Assembly (NCBI GenBank): GCA_902773995.1
Contig: CACYGL010000001.1
Span: 62,001 to 126,000, forward strand
Direction of reading: 5' to 3'
DNA length: 64,000 nucleotides
From: an uncultured Coriobacteriaceae bacterium
GTDB taxonomy: Bacteria > Actinomycetota > Coriobacteriia > Coriobacteriales > Atopobiaceae
Position numbers and translations under genes: made by a program. The notes beneath the pieces were generated by a model, which was given only the letters and a program-made list of their open reading frames with translations, was not told the DNA's origin and did not search any database. Positions 47,225 to 59,903 of this stretch are shown in pieces; within the stretch, counting starts at the first letter, position 1; every line of letters begins with the position of its first letter.

Positions 47225-47328
47225 GCCGCGCGCCAGAGGCGCTTCTCGGCCAACGGTCCTGGAGGAGGTCTTCGTCTCGAAGTTCCCTACGCTTCCGAAG
47301 CAACCTGCCGGTGCGCCGCTCTCGTCCA

Positions 47329-47424
47329 AAACCTCACACGTGTTGTTACTTTCTTGATATTACGGACACGCCATCTGGCCTTTTCCCGAGAAACATCAAA
47401 GAAGAAATATCACGTGTGAGGTTT
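47329..47424. repeat. 14-bp perfect inverted repeat in the convergent gap
   Basis: AAACCTCACACGTG (47329-47342) and CACGTGTGAGGTTT (47411-47424) are exact inverted copies 68 bases apart. TTCTTGAT/ATCAAAGAA inside can add to the fold. The short string CTGCCGGTG also occurs on both outer sides in inverted order (once next to the arm, once 16 bases away). It lies between the alaX-type gene and the truncated GmrSD-like gene, at the edge of the island. It may be a terminator fold or an element end. The remainder of 47225-47439 shows nothing. Confidence 0.7.
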
Positions 47425-47439
47425 CACCGGCAGCGCAGA

Positions 47440-49125
47440 TCACCCCTTGTCGGCGAACGTCTGCAGCGCGACCTCCCTCAGGCGCAGCAGCATGTCCCGC
47501 ATCCACGTCTGGGCCTCGACCCAGTCCTGCCTGTCGTAGTCGAAGTCGCGCCGCAGCCAGAGTGCCTTGTGCTTCATCGCATCGTTGGGATCGCTCCACT
47601 GGAAGAGATTGACGTACTCCCCGAACTCGGACTCTATCTCGTCCCCTCTCGCGTACAAGTCCCCGTAGCCCGCGCCAGTGGGCAGGTAGATGCCGACACC
47701 GGCATAGTGGTCCCTCCTGTTGGCTCTGCACTCCAAATGGCATTCGGGGAGCCCGATGCTAAAAGTTTTCCACAATCTAATACTCTGCGGCTTGCCGGTC
47801 GGATCCCCAAAGGCGTCAACGAACGCCTGGGACTCGCCGCACAGCTCGTAGAACCCGTGCCAGTACTCTGCGCGGAACTGCTCGTTGTCCGTCGCGACGC
47901 TCTTCCGCCTAGGCCGGAACGAGTCCACCACGTCCGCGGGCAGGTCGGGGAACGCCCAGACCTCCAGCGCCCTCTGGGCCAGCCGCTTGCCGCGGGCCTC
48001 AATGCTCACTGGCGTCCACTCGGTCGCTTCGCGCAGATCGGCCGAGATGCTTATGAACTCGTTGTCGTAGCCGCCGGTGACGCGCTCCTTCTTCTGCTGG
48101 AACGTTCCGTCGGAGAGCTCGGAGTTGTACGCGGTGAGGGTGAGGTTGCCAAGGTTGTGCAGAAGGTGCTCGAACTCCTCGTCATCCACGTCGCCCAGCA
48201 TGTCACGCCACTCCGGGTGCGCCAGCGCATTCTGCGGCATGATGTGCTCGATCGTGTACTGACCGTTGGAGAAGTCGCGCTCGTCCTTGGGGTGGTAGCT
48301 GTTCTCGAGGCGAGACAGCAGGTAGAGCGACCGCCTGAAGTGGTATGCGTCGCGCGTCCGAAGCTTGTCCAGGAACTCGGCGTCTGTGGGGAAACGTCTC
48401 GCGGTCCCCGCCTCTCCCAGCAGAAAAGCCTGCAAGGCCTGCAGGTAGTTGCGCTTCTCGTCTCGTGCCTTCGCAAGACGGGCAATCAGCGAGGAGAAGA
48501 ACTTCTGCAGGCTGTTCGTCGCGCAGTCGCAGACCGAGCGGCGAAAGAGGTAGCTCTCGAGCGTGGAGAGAATGGCGAGAAGGTCGTCCCGGCTGAGCGC
48601 ACCGTTGTCGTGGTCGTCGAGGACGGACATGAGCAGCGGGTCAACGACAGAGATGTCCAGCCGGTGTATGCGCGAGAGGAGCCTGTCCACCTCGGCATCG
48701 CCCGAGGCCTTGCCGCCAATCTGCGCGTAGTAGGTGGCAAACCTCTTGAGCTCCTTGAGGAGCTCCTCAACGGGAACCTCCACGCCATAGCCCCGCGACT
48801 CGTAGTATCGCTTGAACAGCTGGTAGACGTCTCGCCTCACAAGCGACTCCGGCGCGTTGCGCACGGTGAGCCAATCGCTCACGAAGTCGTCGAACTCCTC
48901 GTCGTAGGTCGAGGCGCCAAGCGCTACCTCGATGGGGCGCCAGTAGTTCAGGTAGAGCTCGTCCTGCTTGGGGTGGCCCATCAGCACGAAGTTGCGGATG
49001 AGGTCCGCGGACGAGAGGTCCTTGCCAGTCGAGTTCATCGACTCGAATATTAGCTGCGGGTTGTCCTGCCCCTGCGTCAGCGAGATGGAGACGACCTCGA
49101 GCAGCTGGACGCCCTTCCACACCAC
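47440..49125 (-). pseudogene. 5'-truncated GmrSD-like (DUF262/DUF1524/DUF4268) nuclease gene
   Basis: 561 codons remain. The start is the last part of a DUF262 domain (DNPQLIFESMNSTGKDLS, ADLIRNFVLMG). A DUF1524 HNH-type domain follows, with YTIEHIMPQN near residue 290 and NLGNLTLTAYN, and then a C-terminal DUF4268-like region (YWHGFYELCG to ALWLRRDFDYDRQDW). GmrSD-type enzymes are modification-dependent type IV restriction nucleases. The ParB-like N-terminal half, with its DGQQR-type site, is missing: an in-frame TAG lies just upstream of the conserved part (about 49145) and no other frame continues it. The reading frame is otherwise intact. The break is ~110 bases from a transposase fragment. 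Confidence 0.75.
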
Positions 49126-49261
49126 AAATGACGCAATCGTAAGTGACTACGTAATTGTTGAACATGGCGTCCAAGCTCGCGCATAAGGGTAGCTTATTAC
49201 TGTCGCGCTCCCGTCGCACAATCGTTGTCGTAGGGCGGACGCGGGAGAGGGGCGGCGCGGC

Positions 49262-49483
49262 GTGACGAGCATGAGCACGCGGATGGTGAGGGCGGCGGAC
49301 GGAGACGACGGGGACCTCCTGTCGTTCGGGGACGAGGAGTCGTGCAAGGAGGAGCTGATGCGGCTGCGCTTCCCCGGTGGAAGCCCGGAGCGGAGGCGCT
49401 GGCGGATGGGATGGAAAGGTCTTCTCTCTCAGTCGATGACCCCTGTGGTCCTCTCGCATTCTAGGCGTCTGCATATTTGGTAG
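49262..49483 (+). pseudogene. IS1595-type transposase N-terminal fragment
   Basis: A 73-codon frame (GTG 49262 or ATG 49271). DLLSFGDEESCKEELMRLRF resembles the start of IS1595/ISXO2-like transposases, where F-x-[DS]-E-E-x-C-x-x-x-L-x-x-x-R-[WF]-P-x-G precedes a zinc ribbon. The zinc Cys residues and everything after are lost; the frame changes character after PGGSPERRR. No terminal repeats were found. It looks like the scar of an old insertion or deletion. The stretch 49126-49579 otherwise holds only a candidate promoter for drmE. Confidence 0.4.
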
Positions 49484-49486
49484 AAT
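49478..49486 (+). promoter_or_regulatory. Candidate extended -10 promoter for drmE
   Basis: TG-G-TAGAAT is an extended -10 element 94 bases before the drmE ATG. The -35 region is poor. It is the best promoter candidate in the AT-richer DNA that begins here. Confidence 0.4.
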
Positions 49487-49579
49487 CATCGGACGAAGAT
49501 TGCACAAGGTCGGCAGACGATTCTCCTTTCCTAATCGGTCGTTGTCGGCTGGTGTCCCAACGAATGGAGGCGCTGGTTA

Positions 49580-52219
49580 ATGGGTCAGGAAATGTCATTC
49601 AATACATTTCTTGATTCTGCAATTCAGGCCTTAACCCCTTTAGATGGACCATCACTTGCTTTCCCTGATGTTGGTGATGTCCATTTCACCACTCTAACTA
49701 CGACAAATTTAGCTCTCCTTCGTAAAGCACATGCCTCGGGATACCCTGGCCTCATAGTTAGCTGTCCGGATTTCGAGAGAGAGGCCATAGCAACGGCTTT
49801 TCTTGCTGCTTTGCTTCATCTTGAATTTGATGAGGGTAAGCATGGCTTGCATGAAGCTGAGGCCGGTGAGAAGGCAGCCGTCGGTAGTTGCGTTGTTAAA
49901 ATCACTGAAGTCAACGATGACGAGGTCATGTATTCTTCTTTTGACCAAGTTGAGGGAATCGATAAGAGTTATCGAGCTTTCCCCCTCGTGCATCGGGCTT
50001 CTCCTGATGCTGACCTCTCTAGAACAAAGAACACCAAGAAACGCAAGCACCCATCGTTGGTGAAAGAGGCTTCGCGCTATGAGAACCTTCCCGCACCACT
50101 TCGGCACATCTTAGATTGCTGCGGGAAACCGGTTCCTTCAGTTGGATATGTCACCTCGCCTTCGCAGTACGCCAACGAAGCTCCCACTCGCCTGCTTAGC
50201 GGTCGTATTCTTTTTGACGGGGTTTCCTATAACCTTTCGGAAGTTTTGCCCATTACTTATCTTTCTCCCAAGGGCGACAGGCGTAACGGTTTCAGTTGGC
50301 CCTTTGACTGTCCGCCGTCTATCCTTGTGGGGCCTCGTGTTAACGGTGTCGGCAGCGCTTCCGAAATCGCTGATTTAGCCGACGACGGTCTTCCGGTTGA
50401 CTTCGTCGCTTGCAACATATCGAGCCCCGATCTGATGGACACCGAGCTTTTGTCGGATATCTTGGATCTCAAGGATAGAGGCATTGCTGTCATCGCCTTT
50501 TGCGATCGCTGGACGTTGGCTAGGCTACAGCCTCTCAAAAACAATGGCTTTCTTCCTTTTGACTGGGATGATTGCCGCTTCTTGGACAACAAGCAGGGGC
50601 TTCACTTGTCTTCCATTCAAAACCGGATGCTCACCAGACAACACGAGAAGGTACTTCCGGTTTCTGATGAAGACAGTGGCCTCGCACGCGCAAAGCAAAT
50701 TCTCTACGACGATCTCAGAATCTCTGATATCGACGATGACGATGTTCTCGCAGCCATACAAGACCTGTTTGGGGTGCTTGGTTCAGCCATTAGAATGACC
50801 GAGGCTCCTGATGAGGCGTATAGCAATCGACAGAGAGAACTCATTGACGACTCCCTAGACACAATCAGGTCATCGATGATATTGAGCTCGCAGGAGTTTG
50901 GCGAGATAACAGTCGTCTGCGATATCCTTTCTAAGTTCTTCGAGCCTGGTAGGCTTGCTCCGAAAGAGCAGAGGATTTATGACCTCATCACTCACTTTTT
51001 AAAGAACAAATCGCCCGTGGTTCTGGTTGTCGATAGGAACAGGACCGAAGCCGCCTACAAATACTGGTGCGGAGAGCTTTCCTACAATGGCTACGACACC
51101 GGGTTATTCACTGTTGTGACGACGCGTGATTTCCTTGGAAGCAACTCGCTCGTCGGCGACGAGAACGTTATTTTCAGTGGCTGGTATGACAAGGGAACGA
51201 TGGATCGCTGCCTCCATTCCGGAATAGCAACGAACATGATTTTTGTGCTCTACGGGCATGACGGCGGTGATTTGGAGCTTGAGTGGTGGCTCAATGCAAA
51301 CGAACAGTGGCATAGGGAATCGGACAAATGCGCACTTGCAACCGACAAGGCCCTCGCCAAACTGGGAATCGAACCGCTCAAAAGGTCCAAGAAGGCAGGG
51401 TCAATAGCGACGAGGCGGCGCGACAACGCATCTGAGGGCACTGAGGATAAATCTCCCGCCTCTGTAGTAACAACCATAGAGCGACGCAGGATACAAAGCG
51501 AGCTCGCACGCGAGGGAGAGAAATCCGTCCCTGCCGTGCCTGTCATGTTTCACGACGGTACCCACGTGTGGCTCAAGGCCGACCCTAACCAAGCTAGGAG
51601 TAGCCATCTCCTCGTGATTACCGATTGCCTCACGGGCCAAGATGACGAACCGGATCAGAAGTCTGCTTCTGCGCTCTTACCTGGTGATGTTGTCCTGCGC
51701 ACCCACTCTGACAAGAGCTTTATACGTAGAACCTCTGAAAGCACGACCGAGGGATACGATGACGTTATGGCCTTGGCGCAAAGATGGCGGGAGCCTATTC
51801 TCCGTGCGAGGCGACATGGGTATTCCGATGCCGAAATCATCAACAAGATTTATTCCCGTGTAGCCAAGACTCGCACCAAGGATGGTGTCCGTGGGTGGGT
51901 TAAGGGCAACCCCATCGCCCCTCAGACTAAAGCTGATATCCAGGCGGTGTATTCGTCCCTTGGCTACCCTTTGGCCGATGGCGAGCTGGATCAAATTGCG
52001 GGCGCGGTTCGCAAGATTCGGAACAAGCATCGTGCTGTTGGGCGAATGGCCAAAAAAAGCATGGTTGCCGATTTCCTTAAAGATGTAGAGCGATATGGGC
52101 TCGATGATGCCGTTGAGGGTTTCGACGAAAGGCACGAAGCAGGCGATATCGAGCTTTTGCGAGTAGCCGCTGTTGGTGAGCGAAAGAATGTAGCCGTCGA
52201 TCGTGTCGACGTTCTGTGA
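49580..52219 (+). CDS. drmE: DISARM-associated protein DrmE-like
   Basis: 879 residues, soluble. Identification rests mainly on position directly before drmA-drmB with a cytosine methyltransferase, the gene set of class 2 DISARM, where DrmE is a large protein of unknown function. Visible features: SGYPGLIVSCPDFEREAIAT near the N-terminus, an Asp-rich middle (~390-400), a Rossmann-like SPVVLVVDRNRTEAAYKYW segment (~480), FSGWYDKGTMDRC, and a C-terminal helical region (GYSDAEIINKIYSRVAKTRT, ~755). No Walker motif is seen. GGAGG lies 10 bases before the ATG. The end overlaps drmA by 17 bases. Composition is clearly less G+C rich than housekeeping genes. Confidence 0.72.
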   Translation: MGQEMSFNTFLDSAIQALTPLDGPSLAFPDVGDVHFTTLTTTNLALLRKAHASGYPGLIVSCPDFEREAIATAFLAALLHLEFDEGKHGLHEAEAGEKAAVGSCVVKITEVNDDEVMYSSFDQVEGIDKSYRAFPLVHRASPDADLSRTKNTKKRKHPSLVKEASRYENLPAPLRHILDCCGKPVPSVGYVTSPSQYANEAPTRLLSGRILFDGVSYNLSEVLPITYLSPKGDRRNGFSWPFDCPPSILVGPRVNGVGSASEIADLADDGLPVDFVACNISSPDLMDTELLSDILDLKDRGIAVIAFCDRWTLARLQPLKNNGFLPFDWDDCRFLDNKQGLHLSSIQNRMLTRQHEKVLPVSDEDSGLARAKQILYDDLRISDIDDDDVLAAIQDLFGVLGSAIRMTEAPDEAYSNRQRELIDDSLDTIRSSMILSSQEFGEITVVCDILSKFFEPGRLAPKEQRIYDLITHFLKNKSPVVLVVDRNRTEAAYKYWCGELSYNGYDTGLFTVVTTRDFLGSNSLVGDENVIFSGWYDKGTMDRCLHSGIATNMIFVLYGHDGGDLELEWWLNANEQWHRESDKCALATDKALAKLGIEPLKRSKKAGSIATRRRDNASEGTEDKSPASVVTTIERRRIQSELAREGEKSVPAVPVMFHDGTHVWLKADPNQARSSHLLVITDCLTGQDDEPDQKSASALLPGDVVLRTHSDKSFIRRTSESTTEGYDDVMALAQRWREPILRARRHGYSDAEIINKIYSRVAKTRTKDGVRGWVKGNPIAPQTKADIQAVYSSLGYPLADGELDQIAGAVRKIRNKHRAVGRMAKKSMVADFLKDVERYGLDDAVEGFDERHEAGDIELLRVAAVGERKNVAVDRVDVL

Positions 52220-55200
52220 TGGGGTGTTCGAGTTGGATGACAATGTTGATTGCAATGAGCTTGACGAAGAACTGAGGCGACGCTTGTATGCGTCTGTCTA
52301 CGAGGAGTTCGTCGGACCCATTGATTCCGACTCCGAGGAAACCTTGGATGAGTTCTCTTCGCCATCGCTTCGGTATCATGCTGGCGTTCTTTACCCAAGG
52401 GGCACCCAAATTGATGCGGCCGGGGACAAGAACGCTTCTTCTGATGACGAGGGCCTTGGCGGGTCTCCTGCTGGGACAAGCGCAGGAGATTCGTCTCTGC
52501 CTATTGGAGCGGATGTGCCTGACGGTTCTGAAGTAACCGAAGAGGCGCCAGACGAGGATTACGAAGAGCCAGTATCGCTCTCAAACGCCCGCGCCCAGTC
52601 TGCCATGAGCATGACCTTGTGTGTTCGCGAAGATGATAAAATCTCGGTTAGCATAAGGTGCGCGAGATATATCCGGCAGAACGTCGATGGCAAGAGCTGC
52701 TACAGACGCATCCCTCTCCAATTCGACCTCTCTTCCGAGAATGTTGAGCTTCCTACCGGCACTGGGGACGATGTCAAGCGCGGGTACAAACTTGATGAAG
52801 GAGCCCTTGAGCTCTGGCTGGTTTTCCGGCGCCGGATTCCCGAAGGCGGCGTCGTTCTCACCATTGCCCTATGCAACACGAACACTGCCACTTCTGGGCA
52901 GCGTGACAATTCCTCAGCTTGCTATTACCAAGTCGGATTCAAAGTAAACTCTATTTCGGGCCTTATCCCGCCCGTATGGAAAAGGCTCGATGAATCCTCC
53001 TCCGATGAGGAAGCCAGCAAGAACCTTATTTACCGAAACGTACGCAACTACGCCATAGGGCATGGGTGTGCGACATGCTGGGACCAGGGCGCTGAGGTGA
53101 AGTGGGCCAAGACTCAGGTTATGCCCGTTTCCGATACGCACCCCATGAAGCCCCTCCATCCCCTGATGGAGGGGATAACCCTATCGATTGAGAGCTTCGG
53201 CAAGGTGGAATGTTGGAGCGAGACCTTAGGTGCCATGCACATCCTCTGCGATAAGTACTCTCTCTGGATTAGCCAGACCCGGGAAAAAGCCTCGAAGCTT
53301 CCCAAGCAGTATGAAAGTGCTGCAAAACGGAACCTAGGCCAATGTGATCTCTGCCTTACCCGCATAAAAGACGGAATCAATATCCTAGATAGCGACCAGA
53401 TTGCTAGGCGGGCGTTCATCATGGCCAACGAAGCCATGTACGACCAGTTTCTTCACTACAGCGTGGTATCGGGAGAGCGAAAGAGTCTAGATGAACCCAT
53501 CGGATATACAAGAAGTTGGAGGCCCTTCCAGCTTGCGTTTATCCTCATGAACATCAGGTCGATTATCGACGAGACCTGTGATGACAGGGGCATTGTTGAC
53601 CTCATCTGGTTCCCAACTGGCGGCGGCAAGACAGAAGCCTACCTTGGACTCACCGCATTCGTCCTCATCTGGGAACGCCTTTCCCACGTGGAGAGTGAAG
53701 GGGTCACTGTTTTCATGAGGTACACACTACGGTTGCTGACCTCACAGCAGTTCGATCGCGCCTCGTCTCTGATTTGCGCCCTAGAGTCCATGCGCCGCCG
53801 CATGCCTGATTTGCTCGGGCACCGCGAGTTTCGTATCGGCCTTTGGGTAGGACGAGAAGCGAGCCCAAACACCCGAGACCAAGCTGAGCAGATGCGGCGC
53901 GCCTTCGTTGATCGTAACGAGGGCAGGAACCCCTTCCCTGTCCGCAAATGTCCGTGGTGCGGAAGCAGCTTGGAAGAGAACAAGAGGATATCGTACAGAC
54001 GCGAACGAGGTATGAAGAAGCTTCTCTTCGTGTGCCCGAACGAGGGCTGCGAGTTTTCCAGGGGCGATGGGCTGCCATTGGACGTGGTCGATGAGGAGGT
54101 CTACGCCAATCCGCCATCACTTCTTGTGGGGACTATTGACAAATTCGCCATGCTTCCTTACAGGCGAGAGGCCCTTCCCCTTTTTGGCATCACCGGGGAA
54201 GGAAGGCGGCGTCCGCCCAAGCTTATCATTCAAGACGAGCTGCACCTAATATCTGGGCCTCTAGGTTCAATGACCGGCCATTATGAGACGCTCATATCTT
54301 CCCTCTGCGAGAGAGATGAGGGCGGAAGGAAAGTCCTCCCAAAGATTGTCGCATCAACTGCAACCGTCAGCCGGGCCAAAGAGCAGTGCAACCAGCTGTA
54401 TGCATGTGGCGAGGAAAACGTCTTCCAGTTCCCTCCGTCCGGTATTGACTACGACGACTCTTTCTTCTCGGTCGAAGACAAGCAGTCAAGAGGCCGCCGC
54501 TATGTGGGGGTGTTCGTTCCGACTCTTAACGCCGCCTCGACCAACATACGCCTCTACGCCGACCTCCTTTGGGAACCAGCGACTTGGAAAGACGTGCCGG
54601 ATAATTGGAAGGATCCCTACTGGACAACCATCGGATACTACGGCACCACTAGAGAGCTTGGCCAAGCCGTAACCTGGATGGGCGGCGACATTCCAGAACG
54701 TCTTTGGGAGCATAGGAAGCGTGCCGAGCGTGCCGGCGATGATACCGTTCGTTACATCAACGTCGCCAAGGAGCTTACCGGACGCAAGGATGCCGATGAG
54801 GTCCGAAAGGGGCTTGACAGCCTCTCAATCTCCTATCCTTCCCGCTACGCAGTAGATCTCTGCTTTGCCACAAACATGATCTCCGTCGGTCTAGATGTTG
54901 GACGTTTAGGTCTGATGGTCGTTGAAGGTCAGCCGAAGACCACCGCTGAGTACATCCAAGCTACTAGTCGAGTTGGGCGTGGCAGGGCCAAGGGTATCGT
55001 GTTTGTCGTCTACAGCACCACCAAACCAAGGGATCGGTCGCACTACGAGAACTTTGCCATGTATCATCAGAGCTTCTACCAGAATGTGGAGCCTTCAAGC
55101 GTCACTTCTTTCTGCAGGCAAGTACGCTACCGCGCTCTGTTTGGCACTCTTGCGGGAATATACCGTTCTGTTGATGATGATGATTCGGAAGCCTTCCGTT

Positions 55201-55541
55201 ATCCCGAGGAAGAGCCATTCCATGTTGCTGCCGAGACGATTCTCAGCCGCGTGAAAAAGGTTGATCCCCACGAGCTGCTTAGGACCAAAGAGGACCTTGA
55301 TGTGATATACGAAGACTGGAATACCAGCGACTACGATCGATGGTTTGAACTAAAACCCGAGAACTTTGACCCACCGACACCTCTCATGCACCCCACAGGG
55401 GCAGGGAGCTCTGACGCATGGAGCGGTGGCACATTCGAGGTGCCGACTTCTATGCGAAGTGTTGACGCCCAGTGCAAGGTGAGGATTCTCGGCACGTATG
55501 GTGGCTACGGCGATAACGAGAGAGGCAACAATGATGCCTAG
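52203..55541 (+). CDS. drmA: DISARM helicase DrmA
   Basis: 1112 residues. A non-conserved acidic N-terminus (~1-130) is followed by a domain with WDQGAEVKWAKTQVMPVSDT. The SF2 helicase core follows: Walker A WFPTGGGKTEAYLGL (~470), IIQDELHLISGPLGS (a DELH form of motif II, ~677), VASTATVSRAKEQC (motif III, ~718), and LDVGRLGLMVVEG with IQATSRVGRGRAKG (motif VI, ~920). A Cys4 insert, KCPWCGSSLEENK with VCPNEGCEF (~582), probably binds zinc. DrmA is the core helicase of DISARM, acting with DrmB on incoming phage DNA. GTG 52203 is the start, overlapping drmE. Confidence 0.88.
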   Translation: MSTFCDGVFELDDNVDCNELDEELRRRLYASVYEEFVGPIDSDSEETLDEFSSPSLRYHAGVLYPRGTQIDAAGDKNASSDDEGLGGSPAGTSAGDSSLPIGADVPDGSEVTEEAPDEDYEEPVSLSNARAQSAMSMTLCVREDDKISVSIRCARYIRQNVDGKSCYRRIPLQFDLSSENVELPTGTGDDVKRGYKLDEGALELWLVFRRRIPEGGVVLTIALCNTNTATSGQRDNSSACYYQVGFKVNSISGLIPPVWKRLDESSSDEEASKNLIYRNVRNYAIGHGCATCWDQGAEVKWAKTQVMPVSDTHPMKPLHPLMEGITLSIESFGKVECWSETLGAMHILCDKYSLWISQTREKASKLPKQYESAAKRNLGQCDLCLTRIKDGINILDSDQIARRAFIMANEAMYDQFLHYSVVSGERKSLDEPIGYTRSWRPFQLAFILMNIRSIIDETCDDRGIVDLIWFPTGGGKTEAYLGLTAFVLIWERLSHVESEGVTVFMRYTLRLLTSQQFDRASSLICALESMRRRMPDLLGHREFRIGLWVGREASPNTRDQAEQMRRAFVDRNEGRNPFPVRKCPWCGSSLEENKRISYRRERGMKKLLFVCPNEGCEFSRGDGLPLDVVDEEVYANPPSLLVGTIDKFAMLPYRREALPLFGITGEGRRRPPKLIIQDELHLISGPLGSMTGHYETLISSLCERDEGGRKVLPKIVASTATVSRAKEQCNQLYACGEENVFQFPPSGIDYDDSFFSVEDKQSRGRRYVGVFVPTLNAASTNIRLYADLLWEPATWKDVPDNWKDPYWTTIGYYGTTRELGQAVTWMGGDIPERLWEHRKRAERAGDDTVRYINVAKELTGRKDADEVRKGLDSLSISYPSRYAVDLCFATNMISVGLDVGRLGLMVVEGQPKTTAEYIQATSRVGRGRAKGIVFVVYSTTKPRDRSHYENFAMYHQSFYQNVEPSSVTSFCRQVRYRALFGTLAGIYRSVDDDDSEAFRYPEEEPFHVAAETILSRVKKVDPHELLRTKEDLDVIYEDWNTSDYDRWFELKPENFDPPTPLMHPTGAGSSDAWSGGTFEVPTSMRSVDAQCKVRILGTYGGYGDNERGNNDA

Positions 55542-57387
55542 GAGGAACGCCCGCAACACGCGGAGAGAGACCAAAGGCAAGGAATATTCCCTTCGCATGG
55601 GACAACTCTTCGGTCCTTATAGTGTAGGTGCGATTTATCCATGCGACGCCAACACGACCGTGATGATTGCCGGACTCGATGCATACGAGGGCCAGATTGA
55701 CAAAGGTCGGCTGAAGGAGGTCCGAGACTCAAGGCTCAAGCACTACATTGGGGTTAACAAGCTTTATGCACCGCCCATGGGCGATGGCCCCAACAACGGC
55801 TTTATTCCTGCGGTGAGGTTCCCGAATTGGCTGTACTGCCCTCGCTGCGGCCAGATGAAGTATGTGAGCCCGACTAATTCGAGTGCGTCACTTCGTTGCG
55901 AGTCTTGCAGCAAGAAGTATCACCATGATGTTAGGTTGGTCCCAGAGCGTTTTGTCGTCGTATGCCCCCACGGGCACATAGACAGCTTCCCGGTTATGAA
56001 ATGGGTTCATAGTGGAACCGATATAGATCCTAGAGACCCCGGCCATACTGTTTACAGGCATACCAAGGGCGGAAGCACGACCATGGGCGACATCGAATAT
56101 CGTTGCACCTGCGGAGCCCATCGGTCCCTCAGTGGTGCGAATACTCCTGGCGGGCTGGACAAGATTGGCTACCACTGCACTGGGCGGCAGCCTTGGCTCG
56201 ACCGTACCTCGAACCAGCCGTGCCCTGCGGATAACAAGGATCTCAGGGTGGTCATCATGGGCGCCACGAACGTCTGTTATCCGGATGTCGTCAGCTCGGT
56301 GCTAATCCCAGATGCGCTTGACGAGCAGGTCAAATCCGTTGTTGATCGACAGTTTTCGGTCATGCTCGAGATGGACCGGATGGGCTTTCTCGACAAGATC
56401 ATCGACATACTTGCTAAGGACAACAACGTCAGGCCGGATTCGCTTCGACTCGCCTACAACCAGAAGAAGACTGCCGGGAACGCAGAGCAATCCGAGGTGG
56501 AATACCTCCATGACGAGTTTTTGACACTGCGGGATCCTCAGATATCCAAGCGGGGCGAGTTCATAGGTCGCTCGGTCAATGTCTCGGATTACACCCTTCC
56601 GCAAATGCACAAGTTCATCTCGAAGGTAACCCTAGTGGAGACCCTTACCGTGACGCGGGCGCTCGTTGGATTCACGCGGCTTAACCCCGAGTACAACGAT
56701 TCCAAGACCATGGACGAAAGGCGAAGAGCCTTGTCTCGGAAGAAACTCGATTGGACTCTTGCCAATCAGACAGTCGGAGAGGGCATCTTCATTGACCTAG
56801 ATGAGAAGTGCTTGAAACAATGGGCAAAGCGGCCCGAAGTGATTGCCCGAGTAAGGACTATGCAAGAAAACCTCAATGAGTCTAGGTCTAAGCGCAATCT
56901 CGCTCCGAAAGAGTTGAACCCAAATTACGTGGTTATCCACACTCTCTCCCACCTGTTACTCCTAGGCATCAGCGAGGTCTGTGGTTACACTACCGCTTCT
57001 CTGCGCGAGAGGATTTACTGTCAGGATTTCCTAGGCGATGACGGCGCCGAGGATTTCGAGGACATGCATGGCCTCCTTATCTACACCGCATCATCTTCTG
57101 GAGACGGTTCCTTGGGCGGGCTTGTCCGTTCGGGAGAGCCCGGGCGCTTTGAGGACATCGTTGTTAATGCCCTTCAAAAGGCAACCTGGTGCTCTGATGA
57201 CCCGGTTTGCATAGAATCCACTGGACAAGGTCTCGATTCCTGTAATTTGGCCGCCTGCTACAACTGCGCTCTTCTTCCGGAAACGGCATGTGAGAATGGC
57301 AATAAGTTCTTGGACAGAGGCCTTGTGGTGGGTACATTGGATGAGCCACTAGTTGGCCTCTTCCGAGGCGAGCTCCAAGGTAATTAA
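55531..57387 (+). CDS. drmB: DISARM protein DrmB (DUF1998)
   Basis: About 618 residues. An N-terminal region with GQLFGPYSVGAIYP and a zinc ribbon YCPRCGQMKYVSP with CESCSKKY (~102-130) is followed by VVCPHGHIDSFP and EYRCTCGAH. The C-terminal third is a DUF1998 domain: HTLSHLLLLGISEVCGY, GLLIYTASSSGDGSLGGL and ACYNCALLPETACENGN. DrmB partners DrmA in DISARM. ATG 55531 has GAGAGG just upstream and overlaps the drmA end by 11 bases; an in-frame ATG at 55498 is the alternative. Its stop codon overlaps the converging methyltransferase stop. Confidence 0.88.
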   Translation: MMPRRNARNTRRETKGKEYSLRMGQLFGPYSVGAIYPCDANTTVMIAGLDAYEGQIDKGRLKEVRDSRLKHYIGVNKLYAPPMGDGPNNGFIPAVRFPNWLYCPRCGQMKYVSPTNSSASLRCESCSKKYHHDVRLVPERFVVVCPHGHIDSFPVMKWVHSGTDIDPRDPGHTVYRHTKGGSTTMGDIEYRCTCGAHRSLSGANTPGGLDKIGYHCTGRQPWLDRTSNQPCPADNKDLRVVIMGATNVCYPDVVSSVLIPDALDEQVKSVVDRQFSVMLEMDRMGFLDKIIDILAKDNNVRPDSLRLAYNQKKTAGNAEQSEVEYLHDEFLTLRDPQISKRGEFIGRSVNVSDYTLPQMHKFISKVTLVETLTVTRALVGFTRLNPEYNDSKTMDERRRALSRKKLDWTLANQTVGEGIFIDLDEKCLKQWAKRPEVIARVRTMQENLNESRSKRNLAPKELNPNYVVIHTLSHLLLLGISEVCGYTTASLRERIYCQDFLGDDGAEDFEDMHGLLIYTASSSGDGSLGGLVRSGEPGRFEDIVVNALQKATWCSDDPVCIESTGQGLDSCNLAACYNCALLPETACENGNKFLDRGLVVGTLDEPLVGLFRGELQGN

Positions 57388-58946
57388 TGGGCTTCGTTTT
57401 CTGAAGTCCACGAATGGGTGCACCCCAAGTAGTATCTTGCTTCAGCGCCTAGCGCTGAAGCAACCACCGATGCGATTTGCTGGGCGAGGAGTGGTGGCAC
57501 AGCATTTCCTACCTGCGTGTACTGCGAGGTGCGATTGCCCTCGAAGAAGTAGTCGTCGGGGAACGTCTGGAGCCTTGCGGCCTCCCGGACAGTGAGGCTG
57601 CGGCATTGCTCAGGATCTGGATGGATGTAGTAGTGGCCGTCTTTGGCAATGTGCGAGGTTATCGTTGTTGAGGGTCTATCGAACACTTGGACTCGAAACC
57701 TATCGTTGAACTCGTACTCGCCGCCCTCCTTGACCTCAGAGATATTCTCGGTGACGTTCTTATGGTTAGGGAGCAGCTCGTCAGGGAAGTCTTCCAGTCG
57801 AGCCGAAACTCCATTAACCTCCGCATAAGCCGAGCAGAACAGGTAGCGATCGAGGTCTTTTGCCAAGTGGGACCTGGCCTCGTGATTGGCTAATAATCTG
57901 CTGCGTTTGAATCGCCATCTATACCACTCGTCATAAAGCCCCTTCTCGTCCGTCACCTTTACCTTTTTCGAAAGCTTGGGGGGACGAGTTGAAATCACCC
58001 GCTGCATCACCGGTACCAGCTCTTTGCAGTCCTCGGCAGCCGCAATCCTTTGCGCGGCCTCGTCTACGTATCTGGCCCAGTTCATTTCGCGCCAGCCTTT
58101 ATTGCGTTCCGAAAAGTTACTCCTCACCTTTGGGATGCCGGTAAGTGCCATTCTGAGAGTTGTGGTTTCTCGGGGCGTCAGGATTGACGTGGTCAGGCCC
58201 GACCCCTGTCTCACCCCGAGGAGAATAACCCTGTGTCGCATCTGAGGAACGCCGAAGTTCTCCGCTTCCACAACGTAGTCTTTCGGCTCCTCGGGATCCT
58301 GCATGACTAGTGACCGTATCTCATAACCCGCCTCAAGCATGTCTTGATAGATATGATCGAACACGCCAGATCCTTGGTGTTTAGCCGAGAGCAGCCCCTT
58401 GACGTTCTCCATCACGAACATCTCTGGATTTAGGCCATTTATGAAGGACAGGTAGCACTTGTAGAGCGTGTGCTTCTTGTCCTTGTCGAAATCTGCATCA
58501 TGCTTACGTCTGGAACGGCCTACGAGTGAGTAAGCTTGGCACGGGGGCCCACCAATGAGAACCAGCGGCTTTTCGCCATTAGCTGCTCGCCACTCCTCTA
58601 GTCTTCTTTTTCCCTCGTTTACAAGATTATCGTTTCCCTCAACGAGGGTAGCGCAGACTGCCTCTTTTTCTGCCGCTTTCCATGCTTCCGGTCTGTATGA
58701 GGTAAGATCATCCCATGCTTTATCATCGTGGTCGCTCATGTAGCGTAGGTACACGCTTGGTACCGTACCATCGTCGCGAAGAATCTTGCGGACATAAGAA
58801 CGCAGTTGTAGCGTTTTATGTGCAGACTCATTCTGCTCGACCGACATGATGATTTGGAAAATCGGCTTGCCGTTCTCATCGGTAAGAGATGAGAACCCCT
58901 CGCCAAGTCCTCCTGGACCTGCGAACAAGTCGATTACCGGTATCAC
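57384..58946 (-). CDS. drmMII: DNA (cytosine-5) methyltransferase, DISARM DrmMII-like
   Basis: About 520 residues. C5-methyltransferase motifs in order: IDLFAGPGGLGEGF (I), LIGGPPCQAYSLVGR (IV, catalytic Cys ~138), MFVMENVKGLL (VI), QMRHRVILLGVR (VIII), a target-recognition region (~250-400), REAARLQTFPDDYFF (IX) and QYTQVGNAVPPLLA (X). Class 2 DISARM uses such an enzyme to mark host DNA. GTG 58946 follows AAGGGGG at good spacing; TTG 58952 is too close to it. It faces drmB, and the two stop codons overlap (57384-57387), leaving no room for a terminator. Confidence 0.88.
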   Translation of the reverse strand: MIPVIDLFAGPGGLGEGFSSLTDENGKPIFQIIMSVEQNESAHKTLQLRSYVRKILRDDGTVPSVYLRYMSDHDDKAWDDLTSYRPEAWKAAEKEAVCATLVEGNDNLVNEGKRRLEEWRAANGEKPLVLIGGPPCQAYSLVGRSRRKHDADFDKDKKHTLYKCYLSFINGLNPEMFVMENVKGLLSAKHQGSGVFDHIYQDMLEAGYEIRSLVMQDPEEPKDYVVEAENFGVPQMRHRVILLGVRQGSGLTTSILTPRETTTLRMALTGIPKVRSNFSERNKGWREMNWARYVDEAAQRIAAAEDCKELVPVMQRVISTRPPKLSKKVKVTDEKGLYDEWYRWRFKRSRLLANHEARSHLAKDLDRYLFCSAYAEVNGVSARLEDFPDELLPNHKNVTENISEVKEGGEYEFNDRFRVQVFDRPSTTITSHIAKDGHYYIHPDPEQCRSLTVREAARLQTFPDDYFFEGNRTSQYTQVGNAVPPLLAQQIASVVASALGAEARYYLGCTHSWTSENEAH

Positions 58947-58952
58947 GCACAA

Positions 58953-59252
58953 TCCCCCTTCAAAACATCATTTCGCGCACCTAGGCTACCAGGATGTGAA
59001 ATATGTATCCAGGGGCTGAGGTCAACGAAAGTAATTTACCAGATTTCCCCTTAAGAAACCATGGCACTACCCATCACCACGTTGTGACCCCATCCGGCAA
59101 TGCCATTTCACACTTGCAAACTTGGCGGCCAGCACGAAATGCCAAGCTCACTGTTCTGGCGATTCGAGAGAGTGAAGCACGCCATATTTCCGCGATCTCA
59201 CGTACCGAAATTCAGCGCACATCAAACGAACCTCACGGTAGCCGACGTCACC
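58953..59252 (-). promoter_or_regulatory. Upstream region of the methyltransferase gene with candidate promoter
   Basis: About 300 bases without a convincing gene. On the minus strand TTGACC (59020-59025) and TATTTC (58998-59003) spaced 16 bases could drive the methyltransferase. The part from 59026 to 59240 shows no recognisable feature and may be the right flank of the island. Confidence 0.4.
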
Positions 59253-59903
59253 CTACCACGCCAACACCTGCAGAAGCTCGCCCACGCTGTCGACAACCAC
59301 CGTCGCCCCGGCGCCAACAAGCTCCTCCCGTGACCCGTAACCATACCTCACGCCGACGAACCCAACGCCCGCAGCCAGCGCACCCCTCGCGTCCTGGGCA
59401 CGGTCTCCCACCATGGTGACCATGTTCTTCTCGTCATGCATGCCAAGCCGCCTGAGCGCCTCGTTGATCACATCTGCCTTTGCGGTGCGCTTCTCGTCAA
59501 GCGTAGCCCCTACCACCTGGTCAAAGAGGTCTGTCATCCCAAAGTGGTCGAGGATATTGAGGACGAAAGGCTCGGGTTTGGACGAAGCCACGCAAGTGAT
59601 GATGCCTGTTGCCCTTAGCGTGCCGAGAAGTTCAATAATCCCCTGGTACGGGTGGTTCTCAAAGAGCCCCACGGTTGTGTAGCGTTCACGATAGAGCTCG
59701 AGCGCCCGCAAGGCCTCGTCGTGCGACATTCCAGAGAAGTCCATGAACTCCTGAACGAGCGGTGGACCAATGAAGACCGTGAGCGCAGAGGGGTCCGGCA
59801 CCTCTCGTCCCATCTTCTCGAGGGCGTACTGGACGGACCTTACGATTCCCTCCCCGGATGCGGTGAGCGTTCCGTCGAGGTCAAAGAGCACCGCCTTGGG
59901 CAT
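59253..59903 (-). CDS. HAD hydrolase, phosphoglycolate phosphatase-like
   Basis: 216 residues. KAVLFDLDGTLTASGEGI (motif I), CVASSKPEPFVLNIL (II), a Lys in ATLDEKRTAKADVI (III) and VTMVGDRAQDARGALAAGVG (IV) define a Gph-type HAD phosphatase with a helical cap (~18-85, including FIGPPLVQEFMDFSGM). IGPPL and the YGYGSREEL end are typical of PGP/pyrophosphatase PpaX-like proteins. The substrate is not certain. ATG 59903 follows AAAGGAGTGAAT; an upstream start at 59933 is less likely. Confidence 0.85.
   Translation of the reverse strand: MPKAVLFDLDGTLTASGEGIVRSVQYALEKMGREVPDPSALTVFIGPPLVQEFMDFSGMSHDEALRALELYRERYTTVGLFENHPYQGIIELLGTLRATGIITCVASSKPEPFVLNILDHFGMTDLFDQVVGATLDEKRTAKADVINEALRRLGMHDEKNMVTMVGDRAQDARGALAAGVGFVGVRYGYGSREELVGAGATVVVDSVGELLQVLAW

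What the first reader, a model, noticed from the sequence alone, without database searches (positions are those of the whole stretch)
49580..58946. Class 2 DISARM-like defence locus lacking drmC in a Coriobacteriia-type genome
The sequence shows a large DrmE-like protein, a DELH-box DrmA helicase with a zinc insert, a DUF1998 DrmB and a C5-cytosine methyltransferase. Known class 2 DISARM has these plus the PLD-type DrmC. No HKD-motif gene occurs in or beside the locus. It is either a minimal working form or one whose nuclease role is taken by another protein.
Basis: partly seen in the sequence, partly recalled or inferred. Interest (0 to 1): 0.8.

Follow-up and report, generated by a model that had tools for sequence, protein, structure and literature searches.

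The report
DISARM-like phage-defence operon without drmC
This is a four-gene bacterial anti-phage system of the DISARM kind that lacks the usual nuclease gene; that absence is already known to be common, but here a whole lineage lacks it, mostly carrying other nuclease-helicases instead, while this version carries none at all.

Summary
Window 49580-58952 encodes a DrmE-family protein, DrmA, DrmB and, convergently, a C5-cytosine methyltransferase of the DrmMII type. No drmC lies at the locus or elsewhere in the genome (about 91% complete); the only PLD-type domain found is in polyphosphate kinase. The locus is DISARM-related, but it fails the published type II definition (DrmA+B+C+E+MII), the DrmE equivalog cut-off and, narrowly, the DrmA one. 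Missing drmC is not new: a 2022 paper calls it dispensable and often missing. What comparison adds: (i) the four genes are one mobile cassette, 81% identical in another genus with sharp edges just outside the genes and dN/dS 0.07-0.10, so it is maintained without drmC; (ii) that second genome is a single 99%-complete contig with no PLD domain found, which argues against the published idea that DISARM borrows a host PLD nuclease; (iii) none of ten DrmB-bearing loci in the order has drmC; most carry a NERD-SF1 or other helicase, and two adjoin a type II restriction enzyme; (iv) DrmA's tree puts the DrmE loci on one branch. Best reading: a minimal, conserved, effector-stripped variant acting as a methylation-gated translocase that blocks phage DNA. 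Function is untested.

The parts
49376..59015 (.). four-gene cassette as a unit; edges defined by the end of homology with genome G043
   Evidence: single 9677-bp blastn match, 80.9% identity, no homology outside
49580..52219 (+). drmE-family gene (879 aa); the central part may hold a RecA2-like domain of SF2-helicase type (about residues 459-570), no Walker A found
   Evidence: NCBIfam DrmE_fam 87.7 bits (cut-off 80), Pfam DrmE_C 51 bits; fold comparison Z about 8-9 on a pLDDT 70.5 model, a lead only; motif scan
52203..55541 (+). drmA (1112 aa), SF2 helicase with zinc insert; overlaps drmE by 17 bp
   Evidence: PADLOC DrmA 3e-213; NCBIfam DISARM_DrmAS 880 bits (cut-off 950); homologous to solved DrmA 7s9v_A, 1.3e-144
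55498..57387 (+). drmB (629 aa), DUF1998/MZB protein; overlaps drmA by 44 bp
   Evidence: NCBIfam DrmB_fam 411 bits (cut-off 240); homologous to solved DrmB 7s9v_B, 4.4e-65
57384..58952 (-). drmMII-type C5-cytosine methyltransferase (522 aa), convergent with drmB (4-bp overlap of the ends); alternative GTG start at 58946
   Evidence: PADLOC DrmMII 2.4e-91; Pfam DNA_methylase 9.7e-50; catalytic PPCQ at residue 136
47440..49125 (-). neighbour, not part of the cassette: remnant of a GmrSD-type (type IV) restriction gene that lacks its N-terminal 182 residues
   Evidence: Pfam GmrSD_C, DUF4268, partial GmrSD_N; homologue in G034 is 839 aa and matches only from residue 183
47227..59273 (.). variable island between flanks that are about 92-94% identical in same-genus genomes G002 and G005
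   Evidence: flank alignment; G002 holds 4.2 kb of other genes and G005 about 0.57 kb there

Best explanation
A mobile, minimal DISARM-type defence cassette (DrmE-DrmA-DrmB plus DrmMII) that works without DrmC and without a dedicated nuclease. Proposed mechanism: the C5-MTase methylates host DNA (inferred); DrmAB stays autoinhibited on methylated or duplex host DNA and, as shown for Serratia DrmAB, loads on unmethylated 5'-overhang or single-stranded phage DNA and hydrolyses ATP; it then translocates and blocks circularisation and replication of the phage DNA (inferred by homology). DrmE, perhaps a helicase-like protein without a Walker A, would be an accessory or recognition subunit (inference). 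In sister loci a nuclease-helicase or an adjoining restriction enzyme may add destruction of the DNA; this lineage carries none in the cassette. Shown here: gene identities, intact motifs, no drmC, conserved cassette edges, purifying selection. Not shown: any activity.
For: Profiles and motifs. Homology to the solved Serratia DrmAB 7s9v, whose ATPase is activated by unmethylated DNA and inhibited by m5C, with DrmC dispensable (PMC9142583). The same four genes and no others in G043, 80.9% identical over 9.7 kb with sharp ends. dN/dS 0.096, 0.083, 0.071 and 0.090 for the four genes. No DrmC model match in either genome, no NERD in the own genome, no PLDc_2 domain at all in single-contig G043, and only polyphosphate kinase in the own genome. 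No further ORF over 80 aa within the cassette outside the four genes (the 138-aa ORF at 59003 lies almost wholly beyond the edge).
Against: No experiment. dN/dS averages over a long divergence and would not show a recent loss of function. A nuclease acting in trans (RecBCD/AddAB or another) cannot be excluded. The assembly is only about 91% complete. Five related loci carry a nuclease-like helicase, so this lineage could instead have lost a useful effector.
Confidence: 0.55

Rival explanations
1. DrmAB works with a chromosomally encoded nuclease that is not of the PLD type (for example RecBCD/AddAB), recruited or simply exploiting stalled phage DNA.
For: A recruited nuclease is proposed in PMC9142583. 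Relatives join DrmAB to nuclease-like helicases (NERD or GIY-YIG) or have restriction enzymes beside it, which suggests that DNA cutting is often useful.
Against: No candidate is linked to the cassette. The proposed PLD type is ruled out, as far as domain search can do so, in complete genome G043.
Confidence: 0.25
2. DrmAB recruits a host PLD-family nuclease in place of DrmC, as proposed in 2022.
For: Proposed in PMC9142583.
Against: G043 (one contig, 99% complete) has no PLDc_2 match at E 0.001; the own genome's only match is polyphosphate kinase.
Confidence: 0.03
3. The system is a decaying remnant that has lost its effector, and no longer protects.
For: A degraded GmrSD gene lies next to it. 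By tree and identities a NERD-helicase was probably present in sister loci: NERD-helicase identity tracks DrmA identity in G169, G262 and G347.
Against: All four ORFs and their motifs are intact, dN/dS is below 0.1 in all four genes, and the same four-gene content is kept in two genera.
Confidence: 0.12
4. DrmE (or another part) hides an unrecognised nuclease, so the system has not lost nuclease activity.
For: DrmE has no assigned function; much of its N-terminal half is unmodelled.
Against: No nuclease family matches. The only fold leads are helicase RecA-like domains.
Confidence: 0.05

Closest known systems
Type II (class 2) DISARM: drmE, drmA, drmB, drmC, drmMII
   Same: DrmA, DrmB, a DrmE-family protein and a DrmMII-type C5-MTase in one locus
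   Different: no drmC anywhere; DrmE far below the DISARM_DrmE equivalog cut-off and unmatched by PADLOC; DrmA slightly below its equivalog cut-off; MTase convergent rather than in the operon
Serratia DISARM DrmAB (PDB 7s9v/7s9w)
   Same: DrmA and DrmB homologous over most of their length, including the helicase motifs and zinc sites
   Different: DrmA shorter (1112 against 1325 aa); the methylation-sensing Val1296 region could not be aligned; no DrmC and a single MTase here
DrmAB loci with UvrD and NERD-helicase partners (Rhizobium, Azospirillum, Rhodococcus plasmids; G087, G169, G262, G347)
   Same: DrmA-DrmB core without drmC; four of them also have DrmE
   Different: they carry an extra NERD-SF1 helicase (active-site E-D-ExK conserved) that this locus lacks
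ARMADA (2025)
   Same: YprA-family helicase defence system, no DrmC
   Different: ARMADA has BrxHII-like and PglX-like genes and a nuclease fused to the helicase; here DrmA and DrmB are separate and no such genes occur

Membership tests
Type II (class 2) DISARM, PADLOC definition (PMC9252829) | DrmA present | tested here: met
   PADLOC DrmA 3e-213; NCBIfam equivalog 880 bits, below its cut-off of 950
Type II (class 2) DISARM, PADLOC definition (PMC9252829) | DrmB present | tested here: met
   PADLOC 5e-67; NCBIfam DrmB_fam 411 bits, cut-off 240
Type II (class 2) DISARM, PADLOC definition (PMC9252829) | DrmE present | tested here: inconclusive
   NCBIfam DrmE_fam (87.7, cut-off 80) and Pfam DrmE_C met; no PADLOC match; DISARM_DrmE equivalog 14.6 against 250
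Type II (class 2) DISARM, PADLOC definition (PMC9252829) | DrmMII present | tested here: met
   PADLOC DrmMII 2.4e-91
Type II (class 2) DISARM, PADLOC definition (PMC9252829) | DrmC (PLD nuclease) present | tested here: not met
   no match in the genome with a model that finds control DrmCs; no HKD motif in the window
DISARM core (DrmAB) | separate SF2 helicase DrmA followed by DUF1998 protein DrmB | tested here: met
DISARM core (DrmAB) | unmethylated-DNA-stimulated ATPase and phage protection | not testable with these tools
   needs biochemistry and phage assays
[quoted passage not shown] helicase not split | tested here: not met
   the four cassette proteins match none of these; DrmA and DrmB are separate genes
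Type II restriction-modification | cognate restriction endonuclease beside the MTase | tested here: not met
   no further gene in the cassette; present in relatives G169 (EcoRII-C) and G347 (HpaII)

The most novel reading that the evidence does not exclude
A distinct DrmC-free DISARM lineage in this order, and by architecture also on other phyla's plasmids, in which the effector slot is interchangeable (NERD-SF1 helicase, GIY-YIG-helicase, AIPR, an adjoining type II restriction enzyme); the present four-gene form has dropped the effector and defends with no nuclease of its own, purely by a methylation-gated translocase.
Probability: 0.35. Interest if true: 0.62.

Novelty: new variant of a known kind. 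Interest (0 to 1): 0.42.

Why it matters
How DISARM stops phages without DrmC is an open question in the literature. A compact four-gene cassette, conserved between genera, in a complete genome with no PLD domain found, is a clean natural test of whether DrmAB needs any nuclease. The swap of DrmC for NERD- or GIY-YIG-helicases in relatives points to where effectors dock. A search of the held library for papers naming both DISARM and NERD gave two, and the passages read do not describe this pairing; papers outside that library were not seen.

Tried and rejected
Sought drmC at the locus, in the window and in the genome: absent. Tested the one PLD hit: polyphosphate kinase. Considered the adjacent GmrSD gene as a replacement nuclease: rejected, because it is truncated and lies outside the conserved cassette. 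Considered the 138-aa ORF 59003-59419: composition-driven, outside the cassette edge, no support. Full-length DrmE model was poor (pLDDT 54.8); its fold hits are not used. Tested whether DrmE is a degenerate relative of the UvrD or NERD helicases in the same operon positions: profile comparison negative. DrmE C-terminal model (pLDDT 70.5): helicase RecA2-like matches at Z 8-9, in the range the tool warns may be only a common arrangement, so kept as a lead. Plasmid records gave no DrmE hit by tblastn, so no canonical drmC-bearing class 2 locus could be put in the tree. Alignment of the sensing Val1296 region failed. Promoter and terminator scans were at chance level.
Full report
What is there. 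The window holds four intact genes at the stated place: drmE-family (49580-52219 +), drmA (52203-55541 +), drmB (55498-57387 +) and, convergent, a C5-cytosine methyltransferase (57384-58952 -). Curated profiles support each name: DrmE_fam and Pfam DrmE_C; PADLOC DrmA 3e-213; DrmB_fam 411 bits; PADLOC DrmMII 2.4e-91. DrmA and DrmB match the solved Serratia proteins (7s9v; 1.3e-144 and 4.4e-65). Walker A, DELH, motif VI, cysteine pairs and the MTase motifs are intact. Two reservations: DrmA scores 880 bits against the equivalog cut-off of 950, and DrmE passes only the broad subfamily model, not the DISARM_DrmE equivalog (14.6 against 250), and no PADLOC DrmE model.

No drmC. There is no HKD motif in window ORFs over 100 aa. 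PADLOC model PDLC02585, which recovers two independent annotated DrmC proteins at 93.8 and 150.6 bits, has no match in the genome. The only PLDc_2 domain is in polyphosphate kinase. No NERD domain is found either. The assembly is 90.8% complete, so absence is not absolute.

The unit. The DNA of 49376-59015 matches a locus in G043, another genus of the same family, as one 9677-bp block at 80.9% identity; nothing outside matches. The edges lie about 200 bp before drmE and about 60 bp beyond the MTase start, so the four genes are the unit that moves. dN/dS between the two is 0.07-0.10 for each gene (Nei-Gojobori, dS 0.85-1.13), i.e. purifying selection. The cassette lies in a variable site: in G002 and G005 of the same genus the flanks (up to 47226 and from 59274) are joined by 4.2 kb of other genes and by about 0.57 kb. 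GC is about 53% against about 62%. The neighbouring GmrSD gene is a remnant without its first 182 residues and is not part of the cassette.

Relatives. DrmB_fam exceeds its cut-off in 10 of 395 genomes of the order. BLAST with two DrmC proteins found none at any of the ten loci (two contigs, G124 and G125, end soon after the locus), and the DrmC profile gave only weak matches, of 18 bits or less and in long unrelated frames, in the eight genomes tested. Seven loci have DrmE: own and G043 (four genes only); G169 (also record OMWB01000022, RUG002), with C5-MTase and an EcoRII-C enzyme upstream and a NERD-SF1 helicase downstream; G262 and G347, with NERD-helicase and C5-MTase, G347 also with a HpaII-type enzyme; G087, with NERD-helicase between drmE and drmA and a DrmMII 63% identical to the own one; G028, with a GIY-YIG/SLFN-type helicase and an Abi_2 gene and no MTase recognised. 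G022, G124 and G125 have instead UvrD-DrmA-DrmB, G022 and G124 also an Hsp70-like gene, with AIPR (G022) or UvrD-type (G124, G125) genes downstream. In nine NERD-helicases, from Actinomycetota, Alphaproteobacteria and Deinococcus, the residues E19, E52/D54 and E68-x-K70 are invariant, as expected for an active PD-(D/E)xK-type site (activity is inference). Plasmid loci with the closest DrmA proteins, such as Azospirillum and two Rhizobium, read UvrD-DrmA-DrmB-NERD without drmC; drmC occurs in the cyanobacterial class 1-type and Pseudanabaena loci. These were chosen by similarity and are not a census.

Evolution. In a tree of 21 DrmA proteins the seven DrmE loci lie on one side of a branch (100/99), own and G043 inside. 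NERD-helicase identities follow DrmA identities in G169, G262 and G347 (52 and 75% against 50 and 79%), which suggests joint inheritance there; in G087 the helicase is more divergent and sits elsewhere. The MTase does not follow: own against G087 is 63% in the MTase but 42% in DrmA. So the lineage of the window probably exchanged its MTase and lost its helicase; this is inference.

How it may work. Published work shows Serratia DrmAB to be an autoinhibited ATPase that is activated by unmethylated DNA, prefers ssDNA or 5' overhangs and is slowed by m5C; DrmC did not co-purify and is dispensable (PMC9142583). The authors propose a borrowed PLD nuclease. G043 is a single contig, 99% complete, with no PLDc_2 match, so that proposal is unlikely for this cassette. 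The most economical model is a methylation-gated translocase that blocks circularisation and replication, any degradation being left to host enzymes. DrmE: residues about 459-570 resemble SF2-helicase RecA2 domains (Z 8-9 on a pLDDT 70.5 model), no Walker A was found, and profile comparison with operon helicases is negative. A helicase-like accessory subunit is a lead, no more.

Verdict. Observation confirmed. The label class 2 DISARM is only partly right, because one defining gene is absent and DrmE is divergent. Absence of drmC is already known in general. The added value is a conserved minimal cassette, an order-wide DrmC-free lineage with alternative effectors, and a complete genome that removes the PLD-recruitment explanation. 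New variant of a known kind; moderate interest. No activity has been tested.

Noticed in passing
47440-49125 (-): GmrSD-type type IV restriction gene lacking its N-terminal 182 residues and an internal stretch relative to the 839-aa homologue in G034; probably a remnant.
   Followed up: yes
47227-59273: Variable insertion site between a tRNA_SAD (alanyl-tRNA editing-like) gene and a HAD phosphatase; other species of the genus carry different content there.
   Followed up: partly
L026:1865-14214, L088:93-12673: Second DrmC-free DrmAB architecture: coiled-coil protein, Hsp70/actin-like ATPase, UvrD helicase, DrmA, DrmB, then AIPR or a UvrD-type helicase. A chaperone-like ATPase in a DISARM-type operon is unusual.
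   Followed up: partly
L002:5054-17214; L038:5482-17566: Type II restriction-modification pairs (EcoRII-C type, HpaII type) lie beside DrmE-DrmA-DrmB-NERD-helicase in the same orientation, which suggests a joint MTase.
   Followed up: partly
L024:4015-5772 (-): GIY-YIG-like/Schlafen-group-3-type helicase downstream of DrmB in G028, in the position of the NERD-helicase of sister loci; the GIY-YIG match is weak (17.8 bits, below cut-off).
   Followed up: no
57384-58952: The MTase is 63% identical to that of G087 although DrmA is only 42% identical: the MTase seems to be exchanged independently of the core.
   Followed up: partly
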